Positions 3,411 through 54,826 of a stretch of DNA of 64,000 bases are shown here, piece after piece. The stretch lies in the NCBI RefSeq assembly GCF_002591915.1, contig NZ_NIHB01000001.1:225805-289804 (forward strand). Reading direction: 5' to 3'. The first letter of the stretch is position 1. The number at the start of each line of letters is the position of its first letter. Under the pieces are notes generated by a model. The model was given only the letters and a program-made list of their open reading frames with translations, searched no databases and was not told the DNA's origin. The translations under genes were made by a program, and so were the position numbers. Source of the stretch: Marinicella litoralis (lineage in GTDB: Bacteria > Pseudomonadota > Gammaproteobacteria > Xanthomonadales > Marinicellaceae).

Positions 3411-3917
3411 ATGAAAAATATGATCTTGCTATTGGTGATGTTGACCGGTTGTCACAAGAATGCCGTTAAAACCACACCAAAAAACCCTGTTTTGGGTGCT
3501 TGGCAAGTGGTTTCAATCGAATGGAAATCGAATGAACGCACCGCTGCTATAGAACAGGCCCAAGCTGGCATGTTTATTTTCAATGAACAACACTATGCTT
3601 TGATGTGGAGCCCGAAAAAAACACCAAGAACAGCTTTTGTTGATTTGTCTGATCCCACTGATGAAGAAATTTTGGCCGGTTTCAAATCCATTGTTTTCAA
3701 TGCGGGTAGCTACCAAATTAACAACCAACAACTGGTTGCTACAGCCAAAGTAGCCAAAGTACCGGGGTTTGAAGGTGGGCAACTGTTTTATCGTTTCCGT
3801 TTTGAAAACCAGCAATTGATCCTTACATTGTATGATGAGACATACCCTGATGGCAGTAAGCCAGACTGGTCCGGCAAGTGGCAAACCAAGTTCATTCTTG
3901 AACCCGCAACACTTTAA
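3411..3917 (+). CDS. small lipoprotein, lipocalin-like
   Basis: A 168-residue exported lipoprotein. The N-terminus is a short hydrophobic signal ending in the lipobox LTGC, so Cys14 should be lipidated. The mature part begins with an LGAWQVVSIEW motif like that of lipocalin-like (Lipocalin_4) domains, followed by alternating beta-type segments. I chose the ATG at 3411 because GGAG sits 5 bases upstream; a GTG at 3405 is possible but is badly placed. The function is unknown. It lies 59 bases after the ABC exporter gene on the same strand, which could hint at a shared process but does not prove it. Confidence 0.75.
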   Translation: MKNMILLLVMLTGCHKNAVKTTPKNPVLGAWQVVSIEWKSNERTAAIEQAQAGMFIFNEQHYALMWSPKKTPRTAFVDLSDPTDEEILAGFKSIVFNAGSYQINNQQLVATAKVAKVPGFEGGQLFYRFRFENQQLILTLYDETYPDGSKPDWSGKWQTKFILEPATL

Positions 3918-3926
3918 ACGACTTGG

Positions 3927-4358
3927 TCAGTCGGCTTGTTCTATCAATTGGTGACTGTGCGTGATGTTCACAGTGTCCTGTAACATGTGTGATACCGAAC
4001 AGTATTTTTCTGCTGAAAGTTTGATGGCTCGAGCCACTTGTTTCTCTGACAAATCTGTTCCCGTTACAACAAAATGTAAGTTGATGTCGGTATAAATTTT
4101 CGGAATTTCATCGCGCCTTTCAGCCGACACCTTGACTTGAATGTCGCTGAAATTTTGTTTGGCTTTGGTCAAAATCAATTTCACATCAATCCCTGCACAG
4201 CTGCTTAATCCCATTAACACCACTTCCATGGGTGAGGGACCTATTTTTTCACCGTCTTTCGAAGCGGGTGAATCCATCACAATGCTTTGATTGGTTTCGT
4301 TGGTACTGACGAAGGTATAGTCTTTAACCCATTGGGTGGTGACGATGTTTTTTTTCAT
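3927..4358 (-). CDS. OsmC family peroxiredoxin-like protein
   Basis: A 143-residue cytoplasmic protein of the OsmC/Ohr superfamily. The two redox cysteines are visible: Cys54 in LSSCAGIDV and Cys120 in EKYCSVSHML. The GPSPMEVVLMGLSSC segment is the family hallmark. These proteins reduce organic hydroperoxides. The sequence lacks the Ohr-type spacing cues, so it is best called OsmC-like (YhfA type). The gene starts 9 bases after the esterase gene on the same strand, so the two probably share a transcript. It is convergent with the lipoprotein gene. Confidence 0.92.
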   Translation of the reverse strand: MKKNIVTTQWVKDYTFVSTNETNQSIVMDSPASKDGEKIGPSPMEVVLMGLSSCAGIDVKLILTKAKQNFSDIQVKVSAERRDEIPKIYTDINLHFVVTGTDLSEKQVARAIKLSAEKYCSVSHMLQDTVNITHSHQLIEQAD

Positions 4359-4367
4359 GATTGACTC

Positions 4368-5180
4368 TTACTGTTTGGGTTGCTTGGTTTCAGCCAACAG
4401 CCACACCATGCCTTGGCGGAATGCTGCAGTGATGCTGCTCATGTGATTATGGCCTGCTGCCGTCATCACTTTCAGTTGCCAATGGTGCGGTTTTTGCTGC
4501 CAATAATCAAGCCATTTTTTCCTTGGTTTTTGGAACCGCACATCGTCATTGTCAGCTTGCATAATAAACAACTTGGGTTGGTGTTTGCTCGGTAAACCCT
4601 GTGCTAAAAACAAGTCAAGGTTGCGGTGTATCGCAGGGTTGCTGGCAATGACTGCACTGAATGTCTGGGGTTGAAACTGGGTGGTGTATAAAGCAAACTG
4701 ACCACCTAAGGAGTGACCAAAAAGCATGCTTTGCTTCGGATCTACGGGGTATTTTTGTTCAATCAAAGGCATCAACTCTGCACTTAAAAACCGATGGAAT
4801 TGTTCAGCACCACCATAATGTTCACGATCAGCCGCTGGTAAGGTAAAGTCGGTACTGCGGCGATTTCCTTGTTGCCAATCACTGCTGCCATAAGATATGC
4901 CCACCAATATGACCGGAGGAATCTCATTCAAAAAAGTCATGTATTTCGCATAGGGAACAAACATCGGAAAGGTGTTGCCGCCATCCAGTAAATACACCAC
5001 CGGCCACTTCTTGTCAGGGGTTACCTGTTGTGGAACATGGACATAAATATGGTAATCATGATCAACGGTTTTCGAATGAATCTTATGGTACTCACTGCCC
5101 TGCAAGCCAGTTAAGTGTTGTAAACCAGCTGCTTGGCTTGCACCGCAAAGCAACAGCAAAACCATCACTATTAATTTCAT
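4368..5180 (-). CDS. secreted alpha/beta hydrolase (COG2819-type esterase)
   Basis: A 270-residue exported hydrolase. A signal peptide ends near ASQAA (about residue 18). VVYLLDGG, GISYGSS and FGHSLGGQF are typical of the esterase-D/IroE/Fes-like group; Ser157 is the nucleophile, and AAGHNHMSS near the C-terminus holds the likely catalytic His. The ATG at 5180 is preceded by a strong GGAGGG site; a further 10 upstream codons in frame are not needed. It sits 48 bases after tolB on the same strand, where pal is normally found. The substrate is unknown. Confidence 0.88.
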   Translation of the reverse strand: MKLIVMVLLLLCGASQAAGLQHLTGLQGSEYHKIHSKTVDHDYHIYVHVPQQVTPDKKWPVVYLLDGGNTFPMFVPYAKYMTFLNEIPPVILVGISYGSSDWQQGNRRSTDFTLPAADREHYGGAEQFHRFLSAELMPLIEQKYPVDPKQSMLFGHSLGGQFALYTTQFQPQTFSAVIASNPAIHRNLDLFLAQGLPSKHQPKLFIMQADNDDVRFQKPRKKWLDYWQQKPHHWQLKVMTAAGHNHMSSITAAFRQGMVWLLAETKQPKQ

Positions 5181-49950: not shown

Positions 49951-52593
49951 GTGGCATTGCAGCCATGCGTCACAGCGCTTAATATGAGGGCTTTAAAAGC
50001 CAACTTAATATCAGCGATGAAAGATAAAAGCCAACTGGTGCAATACCGCAACTCGGTGCTGAATAAATACCAAATTTACAACAGTTTGTTTTTGAATTTA
50101 CCGTTCGATGCGGTGTATAAAACCGGTGTGTTGTTACCGTTGTTAACCCATGCTTGTGTTCAGGGTTATCAAGAACAACAAAGCCCGTATGCAATCATCA
50201 GTGGATTTTTTGCCAAACAAGAAAGTCTGGACACCGAAGAGAAACAAATCAGCGCCTTGTTCAAGTTCATCCAATACATCGAAAGACAAATTGTGCTGTT
50301 TGATTCAATCGAAGAAGCGGGCTATGAAATCAACCATGACTTGAATGGCAAGGGCAGCGTTCCTTATTTAGCCAACCAAGCTGAACACCTGAACCAAACG
50401 GCTGCGTTGCGCCAGGTGTTACAAAGTTATCGAGTCAGGGTGGTATTAACCGCCCATCCCACGCAGTTTTATCCAGGGCCGGTGTTGGGCATCATGACCG
50501 ATTTGAGCGAAGCGATCAAAACCAATGACCTGGTGATGATTGAACAGTTGTTACAACAACTCGGCAAAACGCCGTTGTTCAGTAAAAGTAAACCCACGCC
50601 ATTTGATGAAGCGGTGAGTTTGATTTGGTATTTGGAAAATGTGTTTTACAACACGGTTAAGCACACCTTGCGACGCATCCAATCACAGGTGTTTGCTGAC
50701 CAAGCGATGCCCGATAACACCTTCATCGAATTGGGTTTTTGGCCAGGCGGTGATCGAGATGGTAACCCCTTTGTTGATTCAGCCACCACCATCAAAGTGG
50801 CAGACCGCTTACATCGCAGCATCCTCAAATGTTACTACCGAGATGTCAGGGCGTTAAAAAAGCGGCTGACTTTTGAGGGTGTGGATGAAATGATTGAACG
50901 CCTAGAACAACAACTGTATCAAGCGGCGTACATGACCCATGAAAAAAACCAGCTAAGCCAAAAGCGATTGTTGGAGGCTTTGACTGAAATTCATCAAGAG
51001 GTTAAAAATAAGCACCACAGTTTGTTTATTGACTTGGTACAGGATTTGATCAATCAGGTGAAGTGTTTTGGCTTGTACTTTGCCACCTTAGACATTCGTC
51101 AGGACTCAAGGGTTCACCACCAAGTGATGATTGAAATGGCCACTGAAACCGCGATGTTAGATGTTCATTATGCCGATTTAACCGCCGCACAACAAATGGC
51201 CGCATTGAACCACATCAAAGGGCCGGTGGAAGCATCTGACTTGTCGTCAACGCTGGCCCAAGATACATTGAACAGTGTACTGGCGATCGAAAAAATTCAA
51301 AAAACCAATGGTGAGTTTGGCGCCAATCGCTACATCATCAGCAACTGTCAATCGGCCTTGAACGTGATGGAAGTGTTGGCCTTTTTTCAACTGGCAGGTT
51401 GGTCAGCGCCGACGGTGACCGTTGATATCGTGCCTTTGTTTGAAACCATCGATGATTTGATGGCGGCACCTGAAATCATGGCATCCCTGTATCAAAACCC
51501 CAAATACCAGCAGCATTTATCGCTGCGCAAGCAACAACAAACCATCATGCTGGGATTTTCCGATGGCACCAAAGACGGTGGTTATTTGGCGGCCAATTGG
51601 TCCATTTTAACCGCCAAAGAAAAGCTGACCGCAGTGTCCCGAAAACACGGTGTTGCTGTGGTCTTTTTCGATGGTCGGGGCGGACCACCAGCCAGGGGCG
51701 GTGGAGAAACCCATAAATTTTATGCATCACAAAGTCCTGACATCGCCAACCACGCGACCCAATTAACGGTCCAAGGCCAAACCATTTCATCTAATTTTGG
51801 CAACACCCAGTCAGCCCAATACAACCTCGAACAATTATTGAGTGCCGGCTTGTCCAGTGCCATTTTTCCACAAGGAAAGGGTTGGGATGACGACAGCAAG
51901 CAGCTGCTAGGACGGCTGTCTGAACTGAGTTTGGAAAAATACAGTGGCTTCAAACAACACCCTAAATTCATTCCCTATTTAGAAAAAATCAGTACTTTAA
52001 AATACTATGGCATGACCAACATCGGCAGCCGACCCAGCAAAAGATCAGCCGGCAAAGGCCTGGTGTTCGAAGACCTGAGGGCGATTCCTTTTGTCGGTGC
52101 TTGGAGCCAGTTGAAACAAAATGTCTTGGGTTATTATGGCGTAGGAACGGCCTGTGAAACCCTCAGCCAAGACGGATTACAACAGCCGTTACAAACCCTG
52201 TACCAACAATCCGGGTATTTCAAAGCATTGATCGATAACAGCATGATGTCCATTTGTAAGTCATTCATGCCATTAACCGCCTATTTACAACAAGACCCAG
52301 AATTCGGCGGATTTTGGGACAACATCAACGACGAATTCAAACTGGCCAACAAGCACCTCAAGTCAATCGCAGAAGTAGACACCCTGCTGCTGGACCAACC
52401 CCTGCGAAAAGAATCGATTCGAGTGCGTGAATCCATCGTCTTACCCTTGTTAACCATTCAACAATATTGTTTACAAAAAATGGGTCAGTTAGCGCGTCAA
52501 GAACAGCCAGATAAAGCCTTAATGGCCACCTATGAAAAGTTGGTCACCCGCTCCTTGTACGGCAACATCAATGCAGCAAGAAATGCGGTGTAA
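49951..52593 (+). CDS. ppc: phosphoenolpyruvate carboxylase
   Basis: An enzyme of up to 880 residues that adds bicarbonate to PEP to form oxaloacetate, refilling the citric acid cycle. Active-site segments: VVLTAHPTQ, FWPGGDRDGNP, GFSDGTKDGG (altered from the usual SxxxKDAG), RGGPPARGGG, and the C-terminal NAARNAV where the family ends in NTG. It is the shorter branch of the family. Start uncertain: GTG at 49951 has AAGG in front; ATGs at 49984 and 50017 also fit. A cassette insertion follows downstream. Confidence 0.93.
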   Translation: MALQPCVTALNMRALKANLISAMKDKSQLVQYRNSVLNKYQIYNSLFLNLPFDAVYKTGVLLPLLTHACVQGYQEQQSPYAIISGFFAKQESLDTEEKQISALFKFIQYIERQIVLFDSIEEAGYEINHDLNGKGSVPYLANQAEHLNQTAALRQVLQSYRVRVVLTAHPTQFYPGPVLGIMTDLSEAIKTNDLVMIEQLLQQLGKTPLFSKSKPTPFDEAVSLIWYLENVFYNTVKHTLRRIQSQVFADQAMPDNTFIELGFWPGGDRDGNPFVDSATTIKVADRLHRSILKCYYRDVRALKKRLTFEGVDEMIERLEQQLYQAAYMTHEKNQLSQKRLLEALTEIHQEVKNKHHSLFIDLVQDLINQVKCFGLYFATLDIRQDSRVHHQVMIEMATETAMLDVHYADLTAAQQMAALNHIKGPVEASDLSSTLAQDTLNSVLAIEKIQKTNGEFGANRYIISNCQSALNVMEVLAFFQLAGWSAPTVTVDIVPLFETIDDLMAAPEIMASLYQNPKYQQHLSLRKQQQTIMLGFSDGTKDGGYLAANWSILTAKEKLTAVSRKHGVAVVFFDGRGGPPARGGGETHKFYASQSPDIANHATQLTVQGQTISSNFGNTQSAQYNLEQLLSAGLSSAIFPQGKGWDDDSKQLLGRLSELSLEKYSGFKQHPKFIPYLEKISTLKYYGMTNIGSRPSKRSAGKGLVFEDLRAIPFVGAWSQLKQNVLGYYGVGTACETLSQDGLQQPLQTLYQQSGYFKALIDNSMMSICKSFMPLTAYLQQDPEFGGFWDNINDEFKLANKHLKSIAEVDTLLLDQPLRKESIRVRESIVLPLLTIQQYCLQKMGQLARQEQPDKALMATYEKLVTRSLYGNINAARNAV

Positions 52594-52844
52594 TGAATAG
52601 GCGTTGTTGAGTTATTTACGGGGACAGCCAGAGTGATAATCAGGAAAATGTGCACGTTTACCCTGTAATAGACGTCAATCAACGCATTGATGCACAACTA
52701 TCCGCCCATTTCCTGATAATCATGCAGTCGAAAAATCCCTTCAAAGTAAGAAATCAATGACTTACAATGAAATCTTTAAAAAAAGCGTGCACGTATTTAA
52801 GCCAATACCTTGTTAGATGGCACTGATGCACTATTAATAAATTG
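52594..52844. other. intergenic stretch with inverted repeat, ppc to cassette
   Basis: No gene seen. It has TGATAATCAGGAAAATG at 52634-52650 and a near-perfect inverse copy at 52707-52722, plus two copies of GTGCACGT at 52650-52657 and 52787-52794. A second integron-core-like GTTAGAT is at 52812-52818. Confidence 0.5.
52634..52722. repeat. 17-bp imperfect inverted repeat
   Basis: The left arm TGATAATCAGGAAAATG and the inverse of the right arm TGATTATCAGGAAATG differ at one base and one gap, with a 56-base loop. The loop contains more short stems. It looks like a REP-type or transposon-end remnant. Confidence 0.6.
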
Positions 52845-53496
52845 TTAGCTTTCAAAGAAGATATCGGAGAAATATGAATAATTTAAAATATATATTGCTT
52901 GTATTGACTTTATCTATCTCAGGCCAAGCCGCTTCAGGCAATGAAATAACCAATCATGAAGCTGCAGGAAATCTGGAATCCCCAAAGCCATCTGGCTGCG
53001 TTCAAATCAGCAACCTTACTAGTCAACAAAATCCAGTCGATATTTTTACTGGATTAAATCGTTGCTTAGCCCATGACGATTACCAAAAAGCAGCAAGCTT
53101 ATATTTGGTTGGCATGAGTTACGGATATTACGACACCAAGCGAGTTTCTGATAGAACTGCACATCAAGCTATTAGCGTTCTTCGAATGAACGCTTTTAGT
53201 TCAGTATCTGGTGAGCATTTAACCTTGTTGCAGGCCGAAGTAACCAAGCTAACATCGAACAATAGTGAAATATGCGAAAGCATCAATAAGCTAGGTGTGC
53301 CAGCTTACAAGCCAACTTATATGATCCAGCATGGCATGGGAGCATTTACAGGTCAAAGTACTAAAGACGGATTAGTTGAAAACTTCGATTCACAACAAGC
53401 ATGGAAAGATACCTTATCAAAAATCGTAAAGTGTGTTTAAAGCTAACAAAAAAAGGCATCGGACGTCTGCTGCGCAGCCGCTCAATGCTTTAGACG
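52845..53496 (+). mobile_element. solitary integron-type gene cassette
   Basis: One gene with a short leader is bounded on the left by GTTAGCT (52844-52850) and on the right by an attC-like site starting with AGCTAAC, the exact complement of that core. The gene stop is immediately followed by the attC site and the gene reads toward it, the standard cassette layout. No integrase is visible in the window, so this is either a cluster remnant lacking an integrase or an insertion at a secondary GTT site. An alternative left border is GTTAGAT at 52812. Confidence 0.7.
52874..53440 (+). CDS. cassette-encoded exported protein, unknown function
   Basis: A 188-residue protein with a signal peptide (cleavage near GQAAS, about residue 20). 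The mature part has four spaced cysteines (SGCVQ, NRCLA, EICES and the C-terminal KCV), which may form disulfides in the periplasm. It has helical segments such as DDYQKAASLYLVGMSYGYYD that resemble a TPR/Sel1-like helix pair. CGGAGAAAT lies directly before the ATG. I do not recognise the family. Its codon use looks more AT-rich than ppc and thrC, as is common for cassettes. Confidence 0.8.
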   Translation: MNNLKYILLVLTLSISGQAASGNEITNHEAAGNLESPKPSGCVQISNLTSQQNPVDIFTGLNRCLAHDDYQKAASLYLVGMSYGYYDTKRVSDRTAHQAISVLRMNAFSSVSGEHLTLLQAEVTKLTSNNSEICESINKLGVPAYKPTYMIQHGMGAFTGQSTKDGLVENFDSQQAWKDTLSKIVKCV

Positions 53497-53503
53497 TTAT
53501 AGG
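53441..53503 (+). other. attC-like recombination site
   Basis: Core AGCTAAC at the left and GACGTTATAGG at the right enclose an imperfect palindrome: AAAG-G-CAT pairs with ATGCTTT leaving one unpaired G, and a GCTG-CG-CAGC tip closes the stem. A single extrahelical base and a small terminal stem are how attC sites fold on the bottom strand. The right core (GTTATAG) deviates from GTTRRRY, which suggests that it is host flank. Confidence 0.7.
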
Positions 53504-53599
53504 CACCCCATAAAAGCCATAGCAATGGCATCACGTCTTCTTTGTTCCAAACTGGCAAAAGCCAATTTAAATGAATGGTACAGTCAGGAAACTATCGAA

Positions 53600-54826
53600 T
53601 CAGAGCAAATGCCGCACTTCAGGTAAATACTTCTCAAATGAGCCGGTGTTGAACACCACCACTTGGTCTTTGGGCTTGATCATGTTCATGTCAATCAGCG
53701 GTTTGAGTGCAGCCAAACACGCGGCGCCTTCGGGACAAACCCACCAGTGTTTGTCTTGCCAAATTTCTGACAGGTGCTTGGCAATGTCCGCTTCGCTGAT
53801 CGCAATTGAGGTGCCGCCACTTTGCCGCACGATGTCCACCACTTTAAAATGCCCCACCCCGCCAGCGACATTCAAACCAACGGCCAAGGTTTCACCGGCC
53901 GGTGTAGGTTCTGGCTCAAACAAGTCCTTATCAATGGCGTTTTTAACCGGTGGGGTGGCGGCCGATTGAACCGCGATGATTTTCGGTCTTTGGCTGTCGA
54001 TCATTCCCATGGCTTCCAATTCATCAAAGGCTTTCCACATGCCTAAAATCCCAGTTCCGCCGCCGGTTGGGTACAAAATCACATTGGGTAAAGCCCATTG
54101 TTCAGACAGCCGATTGGGTTCGGCCAGTTCCAGCCCCATGGTTTTTTTGCCTTCGATGCGCCAGCCCGGTTCTTGGAAGGTGGCGACATTGAAATACCCT
54201 TGGGGCAGGTATTTTTCTTTCATCAATAGGCCGGCTTCTTTGATGGTGCCTTTGATCATTTCAAGTTTGATGTCTGGGTTGTGAAAGGCCAAAGCAGCCA
54301 CATTACCCTGAATCGGTGCAGGCGTGTCATCGGGCATGATCACCACCGCGCCAATGCCCATTTCATTGGCATAAAAAGCCAGTGAATCACCGGCGTTTCC
54401 TTGGGTGGGGACGGCCAGTTTTGCTACACCAAAATGCTTGGCCATGTTGATGACTACCGCCATGCCACGGTCTTTGAAGCTCAATGTGGGGTTTTGTCCA
54501 AAGTCTTTGTGGCCTTTGCCTTCATCTTTGATGAACAACTGAAAACCGTGCTTTTTGGCCAGTGCATGGGATGAATGATCTAACAAGGGTGTGTAGCCTT
54601 CGCCATGGGAGGTAAAGCCCGAGGCCATCGGTAACAAACCGGCAAAACGCCACAGGTCTTTTCTTTCAGGGTGGTACCACTGTGTGGCTTGGATGCCAGT
54701 GGTGTCATAGACTGCCTGCACTGGCCTTTGGTCATGCGGACACAGGTTTATCAGGTGGTCTTTGGGGTATTGGGCACCACAAAAGGTACAAGCCAAGTGG
54801 GAAAAATGCGGGTTCAATTCAGTCAT
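53600..54826 (-). CDS. thrC: threonine synthase
   Basis: A 408-residue PLP enzyme that converts O-phosphohomoserine to threonine. Lys118 in NPTLSFKDRG carries PLP. TQGNAGDSLAFYANEMG and YPTGGGTGILGMWKAF are the substrate- and phosphate-binding loops. The N-terminus has a zinc-ribbon-like CTFC and NLCPHD. This is the thrC branch with the short N-terminal domain seen in archaea and some bacteria. It stands apart from homoserine genes. Its 3' end faces the integron cassette. Confidence 0.92.
   Translation of the reverse strand: MTELNPHFSHLACTFCGAQYPKDHLINLCPHDQRPVQAVYDTTGIQATQWYHPERKDLWRFAGLLPMASGFTSHGEGYTPLLDHSSHALAKKHGFQLFIKDEGKGHKDFGQNPTLSFKDRGMAVVINMAKHFGVAKLAVPTQGNAGDSLAFYANEMGIGAVVIMPDDTPAPIQGNVAALAFHNPDIKLEMIKGTIKEAGLLMKEKYLPQGYFNVATFQEPGWRIEGKKTMGLELAEPNRLSEQWALPNVILYPTGGGTGILGMWKAFDELEAMGMIDSQRPKIIAVQSAATPPVKNAIDKDLFEPEPTPAGETLAVGLNVAGGVGHFKVVDIVRQSGGTSIAISEADIAKHLSEIWQDKHWWVCPEGAACLAALKPLIDMNMIKPKDQVVVFNTGSFEKYLPEVRHLL

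What the first reader, a model, noticed from the sequence alone, without database searches (positions are those of the whole stretch)
52845..53503. A lone integron gene cassette between ppc and thrC
The exported-protein gene is followed at once by an attC-like palindrome. The left border GTTAGCT is the exact complement of the attC left core AGCTAAC, and the attC folds with one extrahelical G. No integrase lies in the window. The degenerate right core (GTTATAG) suggests insertion at a secondary GTT site, and the gene is an orphan with four cysteines.
Basis: partly seen in the sequence, partly recalled or inferred. Interest (0 to 1): 0.72.

Follow-up and report, generated by a model that had tools for sequence, protein, structure and literature searches.

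The report
Integrase-less attI site with one cassette
A single captured gene sits in a ready-made docking site and promoter that has no integrase gene beside it, and this genome and its relatives carry many such scattered docking sites while encoding usually only one or two integrases elsewhere, so one recombinase may load genes at many chromosomal places.

Summary
The lone cassette is real, but it is not in a random secondary GTT site. It is a 652-bp integron cassette (52845-53496). Its left border is the exact complement of its attC R'' box. An attC covariance model trained without it finds only this site in 64 kb (34.3 bits). Homologues elsewhere are cassettes with the same borders. It sits at the crossover of a full attI module (52651-52844) that resembles the intI-attI intergenic region of the genome's own integrons and of its relatives. 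The module has a promoter-like site facing the cassette and no intI. The genome has two complete intI genes about 0.8-0.9 Mb away and at least four more intI-less attI modules. Across the genus I found 42 intI-less attI cores. Of these, 24 carry a first cassette with a 7/7 matched border, against 1.6-2.6% by chance. One intI-less attI locus is orthologous in three species, with different cassettes switching exactly at the crossover and at attC ends. This supports loading in trans. Standard detection misses such units, because IntegronFinder 2 needs two attC sites for a CALIN and models attI only for class 1. I rate it a new variant of a known kind. How the roughly 195-bp module spreads is unexplained.

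The parts
49951..52593 (+). ppc (phosphoenolpyruvate carboxylase-like), left host neighbour
52634..52722 (.). inverted repeat (arms 52634-52647 and 52709-52722, 93%) straddling the left edge of the module; unexplained
52651..52844 (+). attI module: the intI-attI intergenic region without intI; crossover after G52844
   Evidence: 95% over 198 bp to C12:342690, 92% over 322 bp to C1:1183058, 86% to C1:79108; homologous to the intI-linked regions of G017, G016 and G003
52740..52768 (+). cassette-promoter-like site TTCAAA-17-TACAAT inside the module
   Evidence: number of matches in the region near the shuffle mean; the two hexamers fall in conserved columns of A1; activity not tested
52845..53496 (+). 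gene cassette (652 bp), TTAGCT...G
   Evidence: border/R'' 7/7 complement; same borders in homologous cassettes of Pseudidiomarina, Paraglaciecola, Pseudoalteromonas and Shewanella
52874..53440 (+). cassette gene, 188 aa, exported-looking, four conserved Cys; function unknown
53441..53502 (-). attC (R'' 53441-53447, R' 53496-53502; bottom strand folds)
53497..53599 (.). host side of the site up to the thrC-like gene; no second attC found
53600..54826 (-). thrC (threonine synthase-like), right host neighbour
   Evidence: congeners with ppc-thrC adjacency and no insert: L017 (G017) and L020 (G004)

Best explanation
The feature is an intI-less integron platform with one cassette. Its ~194-bp module is the whole intI-attI intergenic region: a promoter-like site plus attI, from beside the intI start codon to the G^TT crossover. 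It is one of a dispersed family of attI modules in this genus. A cassette was inserted at its crossover by an integron integrase encoded elsewhere, acting in trans (attI as double strand, attC as folded bottom strand). The module's promoter would then express the cassette gene. Shown by sequence: the module, its homology to intI-linked attI, the cassette borders, the attC, absence from congeners, and multiplicity of modules. Inferred: that a trans-acting integrase did the loading, that the promoter works, and that the site is still active. Unknown: how the module itself was copied to new loci.
For: attC: covariance hit and exact border match. Cassette nature: homologous cassettes with the same borders in other marine bacteria. 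attI identity: the module aligns with intI-linked leaders and ends in the same AATAAATTG^TTA core. Multiplicity: R1 model hits, 7 in G000, 10 in G003, 8 in G017; core pattern 89 hits versus 25 for the reversed control. Loading: 24 of 42 intI-less cores have a first cassette whose R'' is the 7/7 complement of its border; null 1.6% (border swap) or 2.6% (random GTTA sites). Exchange without intI in cis: the orthologous locus in G001, G002 and G012 is 91-93% identical up to +4/+7 of the crossover, then carries different cassettes, then is similar again; window and C1:1183058 share ppc tail plus module but not the cassette; G007 C7 and C14 likewise. Two intI genes above the family cut-off in G000.
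Against: No recombination was observed. Neither IntI A nor IntI B of G000 has been shown to recognise this attI, and the cognate-looking integrase of this attI subtype (G017 C5) has only a 253-aa open frame. Two solitary modules retain an intI 5' fragment (G017 C42, G003 C1:582), so some are plain integron remnants and their cassettes could date from when intI was present. G001 has attI sites but no intI was detected.
Confidence: 0.78

Rival explanations
1. Remnant of a complete integron: intI and attI were once here, captured the cassette in cis, and intI was later deleted, leaving a passive fossil.
For: intI 5' fragments remain at G017 C42 (about 75 codons) and G003 C1:582 (about 47 codons). 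G017's intI is short. CALINs are usually read this way (PMC9024848).
Against: In three attI families the shared block ends sharply beside the intI start codon in near-identical copies (-186 to -197 of the crossover), which random deletions would not give. Duplicates and orthologues that already lack intI carry different cassettes.
Confidence: 0.3
2. Insertion of a cassette at a secondary (attG-type) GTT site by an integrase.
For: IntI can use attG sites (cited in PMC12901181 and PMC12444791). The right junction is not a consensus core.
Against: The left side is a ~194-bp conserved attI module, not unique sequence. Without the cassette the site reads AATAAATTG^TTATAG, an attI core.
Confidence: 0.03
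3. The attI module plus cassette was moved as one unit by a transposon or MITE-type element (like an integron mobilization unit).
For: One G003 copy lies between two direct copies of a palindromic ~150-bp repeat (L087), and similar repeats abut several other copies.
Against: No such repeat, terminal inverted repeats or target duplication were found at the window copy. Right flanks of copies are not shared.
Confidence: 0.2
4. Convergence: the gene and a chance palindrome, with no integron relation.
For: The single-strand fold is only average in energy (z -0.64).
Against: Covariance score, 7/7 border match, homologous cassettes and attI homology.
Confidence: 0.01

Closest known systems
[quoted passage not shown]
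   Same: Cassette(s) with attC and no neighbouring intI; can be mobilised in trans
   Different: Here a complete attI module with a promoter-like site is present, only one attC (below IntegronFinder 2's default of two), and the unit is one of a repeated family
CALINs at conserved loci in Xanthomonas, PMC12444791
   Same: Integrase-less cassette sites at several fixed chromosomal loci, separate from the intI locus
   Different: In the passages read, the conserved positions are read as ancestral integron activity, without reporting attI at these loci; here a homologous attI is shown at each tested locus
attI with ΔattI-type gene cassettes in class 1 and 2 integrons (PMC12901181)
   Same: Partial attI sequence found away from its intI, up to ΔattI2-238, which nearly spans the intI2-attI2 interval
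   Different: There the attI piece replaces attC downstream of the gene inside an array; here it lies upstream, the attC is normal, and the unit sits alone in the chromosome
attG insertions of cassettes
   Same: Single cassette at a chromosomal GTT, away from intI
   Different: The target is a conserved attI module, not a minimal GTT
Integron mobilization units and MITE-flanked integrons (e.g. PMC3934969)
   Same: Integron parts lacking some components and moved as a unit; palindromic repeats near some copies
   Different: No flanking pair at the window copy; what repeats is the intI-attI intergenic module

Membership tests
Integron gene cassette | attC with R''/R' and L''/L' boxes on a folded bottom strand | tested here: met
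Integron gene cassette | left border complementary to its own R'' (circular form has a perfect R box) | tested here: met
   GTTAGCT/AGCTAAC
Integron gene cassette | same unit found as a cassette in other integrons | tested here: met
Integron gene cassette | excision or insertion by IntI | not testable with these tools
   needs recombination assays
Integron attI site | homology to an intI-linked attI and crossover G^TT loaded with a cassette | tested here: met
Integron attI site | cassette promoter (Pc) facing the cassettes | tested here: inconclusive
   conserved -35/-10-like pair; activity untested
Complete integron | intI adjacent to attI | tested here: not met
   no intI in the window; the intI genes lie about 0.8 and 0.9 Mb away on the same contig
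CALIN (IntegronFinder 2 default) | at least two attC sites without intI | tested here: not met
   one attC in 64 kb; rule from PMC9024848
In0 | intI without attC | tested here: not met
   no intI here, attC present
attG insertion | target that is neither attI nor attC | tested here: not met
   target is an attI module
MITE-flanked mobile unit | inverted or direct flanking repeats at both ends and target duplication | tested here: not met
   none seen at the window copy; one G003 copy has flanking repeats

The most novel reading that the evidence does not exclude
A distributed integron: in this bacterial family one integrase serves in trans many scattered intI-less attI modules, each a promoter plus docking site (up to 13 per genome in G013). 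Cassettes are thus placed in first, expressed position at many loci at once, and the attI-promoter module is itself a dispersing element with a fixed left edge at the intI start codon.
Probability: 0.5. Interest if true: 0.85.

Novelty: new variant of a known kind. Interest (0 to 1): 0.7.

Why it matters
Integrons are normally described as one intI, one attI and one array in which only the first cassettes are expressed. A genome with many intI-less attI-promoter modules has many first positions. That would explain lone cassettes and fixed-position CALINs that are now called fossils or secondary-site insertions. It would also mean standard tools miss part of integron activity, because attI outside class 1 is not modelled and single-attC units are filtered out. 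It makes the origin of CALINs directly testable: look for attI to their left.

Tried and rejected
- Rfam search at 52500-53700 and over the whole window: no attC family hit, only a tRNA.
- Minimum free energy of the attC: not above shuffles on either strand, so energy alone was not used as evidence.
- A strict folding scanner missed the window attC; replaced by border matching with two nulls and by a covariance model.
- RNAalifold found no consensus pair on the attC alignment. I wrote the R/L-box structure by hand from the known attC layout and checked it: 82% of cells paired, covariation above all 500 shuffles and above slid controls.
- Common right end of the dispersed units: no shared sequence right of attC.
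- IntI-style left border at a GTT: rejected, because shared sequence continues left of the only GTT in several copies.
- Marinicella-integron literature: no paper; the genus is unnamed in these tools and I did not identify it.
- Literature searches for dispersed, orphan or multiple attI found nothing describing this; the library is open-access only.

Full report
What is there. The window (G000:C1:225805-289804) holds, between a ppc-like and a thrC-like gene, a 188-aa ORF (52874-53440) followed at once by an attC-like palindrome. The cassette runs from 52845 to 53496. Its left border GTTAGCT is the exact complement of R'' AGCTAAC (53441-53447), so the circular form would have a perfect R box. 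Folding energy is not special (z -0.64). A covariance model built from 15 other attC sites of the genus, with a hand-written R/L-box structure supported by covariation, finds one site in the 64 kb: 53441-53502 (-), 34.3 bits, E 4.7e-6.

The gene. No Pfam family passes its cut-off. Relatives at up to 68% identity occur in Pseudidiomarina, Paraglaciecola, Pseudoalteromonas, Shewanella, Microbulbifer and others. In several of them the gene is an integron cassette with the same borders, GTTAGCTTT...AAAGCTAACAA...GCGTTA. Four cysteines are invariant in the alignment. Most relatives have a lipobox-like LSAC that the window copy lacks (lipobox reading is inference). Function is unknown; an exported disulphide-bonded protein is likely from sequence.

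Where it sits. The gene is absent from the 17 other genomes of the genus that were searched. ppc and thrC are adjacent without any insert in G017 and G004. The 194 bp left of the cassette is not host spacer. It matches, up to the crossover G, four kinds of place: C12:342690 (95% over 198 bp), C1:79108 (86%), C1:1183058 (92% over 322 bp, including the last 62 bp of ppc), and the intI-attI intergenic regions of relatives. Everything ends in the same core, ATGCAC(n)AATAAATTG^TTA. This is an attI with its leader, and the intI that should precede it is missing. A promoter-like pair TTCAAA-17-TACAAT faces the cassette and its two hexamers fall in conserved columns of the alignment.

The genome is not integrase-free. 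Two full intI genes score far above the family cut-off, at C1:1040766 and C1:1180685, each with its own attI and cassettes.

How many such sites. A sequence profile of the module (R1) finds 7 copies in G000, 10 in G003, 8 in G017 and hits in 13 of 18 genus genomes. These are lower bounds because only 150 candidates per genome were scored. The core pattern WTAATAARTTGTTR gives 89 hits versus 25 for the reversed pattern, and the stricter WTAATAARTTGTTA gives 73 versus 8 in the genus. I examined 58 cores. 9 have intI next to them and 49 do not; 42 of the latter also have the ATGY box. 24 of these have a downstream attC whose R'' is the 7/7 complement of the border. Swapping borders between sites gives 1.6%, and random GTTA sites in the window give 2.6%. 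G013 has 13 intI-less cores for one intI. G001 has 9 intI-less cores, of which at least two lack the ATGY box, and no detected intI. A second genus of the family, G045, shows at least five more. Some cores lie near contig ends, so an intI beyond the contig cannot be excluded for those.

Exchange without a local integrase. Three comparisons matter. (1) One attI locus behind a gene that looks like a GFA-family gene is orthologous in G001, G002 and G012. The flank and module are 91-93% identical up to position +4 to +7, no intI is present in any of the three, the next 490-1735 bp hold different cassettes, and similarity resumes about where an attC ends (for G002 at +742; its attC R' begins at about +744). 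(2) The window and C1:1183058 share ppc tail and module without intI but carry different cassettes. (3) G007 C7:79398 and C14:89370 share repeat and module but not the cassette. Since intI was already gone in the shared ancestor of each set, by parsimony, a recombinase encoded elsewhere changed the cassettes.

How the module spreads. In near-identical pairs from three attI families the shared block is -186 to -197 up to +4 to +7 of the crossover, that is, from beside the intI start codon to the crossover. Two other loci keep intI 5' fragments (G017 C42, G003 C1:582), so intI loss also occurs. I found no terminal repeats or target duplication at the window copy. A 14-nt inverted repeat straddles its left edge, and palindromic repeats abut several other copies. 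The mechanism is open.

Orientation. GC skew of the flanks, read in the attI-to-cassette direction, is positive at 36 of 44 solitary and 9 of 9 intI-linked sites (two-sided p 2.5e-5 for the solitary set), and all six sites on the 1.4-Mb contig of G013 share one strand. This is what is expected if cassettes run with the replication fork, as described for sedentary chromosomal integrons (PMC11023631). Gene orientation can also bias local skew, and the solitary set includes a few chance cores, so this is suggestive only.

Literature. CALINs are defined by attC alone, by default at least two, and attI outside class 1 is not modelled (PMC9024848). Xanthomonas has CALINs at seven fixed loci away from intI (PMC12444791). 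ΔattI-type cassettes carry partial attI in place of attC (PMC12901181). No paper found describes many intI-less attI modules in one genome; the library is open-access only.

Verdict. The cassette call is correct, but the 'secondary GTT site' reading is wrong. The site is an intI-less attI module in a dispersed family, most likely loaded in trans. I classify it as a new variant of a known kind. Shown: anatomy, multiplicity, border statistics, cassette differences at shared intI-less sites. Inferred: trans-acting integrase, promoter activity, present-day activity. Unknown: the copying mechanism and the gene's function.

Noticed in passing
G000:C1:1182875-1183196 (L024 1875-2196, L135): A copy of the last 62 bp of ppc plus the attI module lies about 1.2 kb downstream of intI B, beyond that integron's own first cassette, with another cassette behind it.
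   Followed up: partly
L087 (G003:C20:127000-137000), about 3690-4600: A decayed solitary attI plus gene lies between two direct copies of a ~150-bp palindromic MITE-like repeat (GTAGGATGGGC...GCCCATCCTAC).
   Followed up: no
L184 (G001:C7), L192 (G002:C1), L196 (G012:C23): Orthologous intI-less attI locus downstream of a gene that looks like a GFA-family gene, with different cassettes in three species.
   Followed up: yes
L186 2605-2691 (G007 intI leader): The type-1 intI-attI leader is built of large inverted repeats (e.g. CATAAATGCGTTATTATCA...TGATAATAACGCAATTATG), possibly integrase or regulator binding sites; solitary copies start at the outer arm.
   Followed up: no
window 52634-52722: A 14-nt inverted repeat (93%) straddles the left edge of the attI module; in the alignment it is shared with the C1:1183058 copy but not with C12:342690.
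   Followed up: no
G017:C5:32840-33535 (L050): The intI of the same attI subtype as the window has only a 253-aa open frame and may be a pseudogene.
   Followed up: no
window 52874-53440: The cassette protein's homologues look like lipoproteins (LSAC lipobox) while the window copy has lost that cysteine; four other cysteines are invariant.
   Followed up: partly
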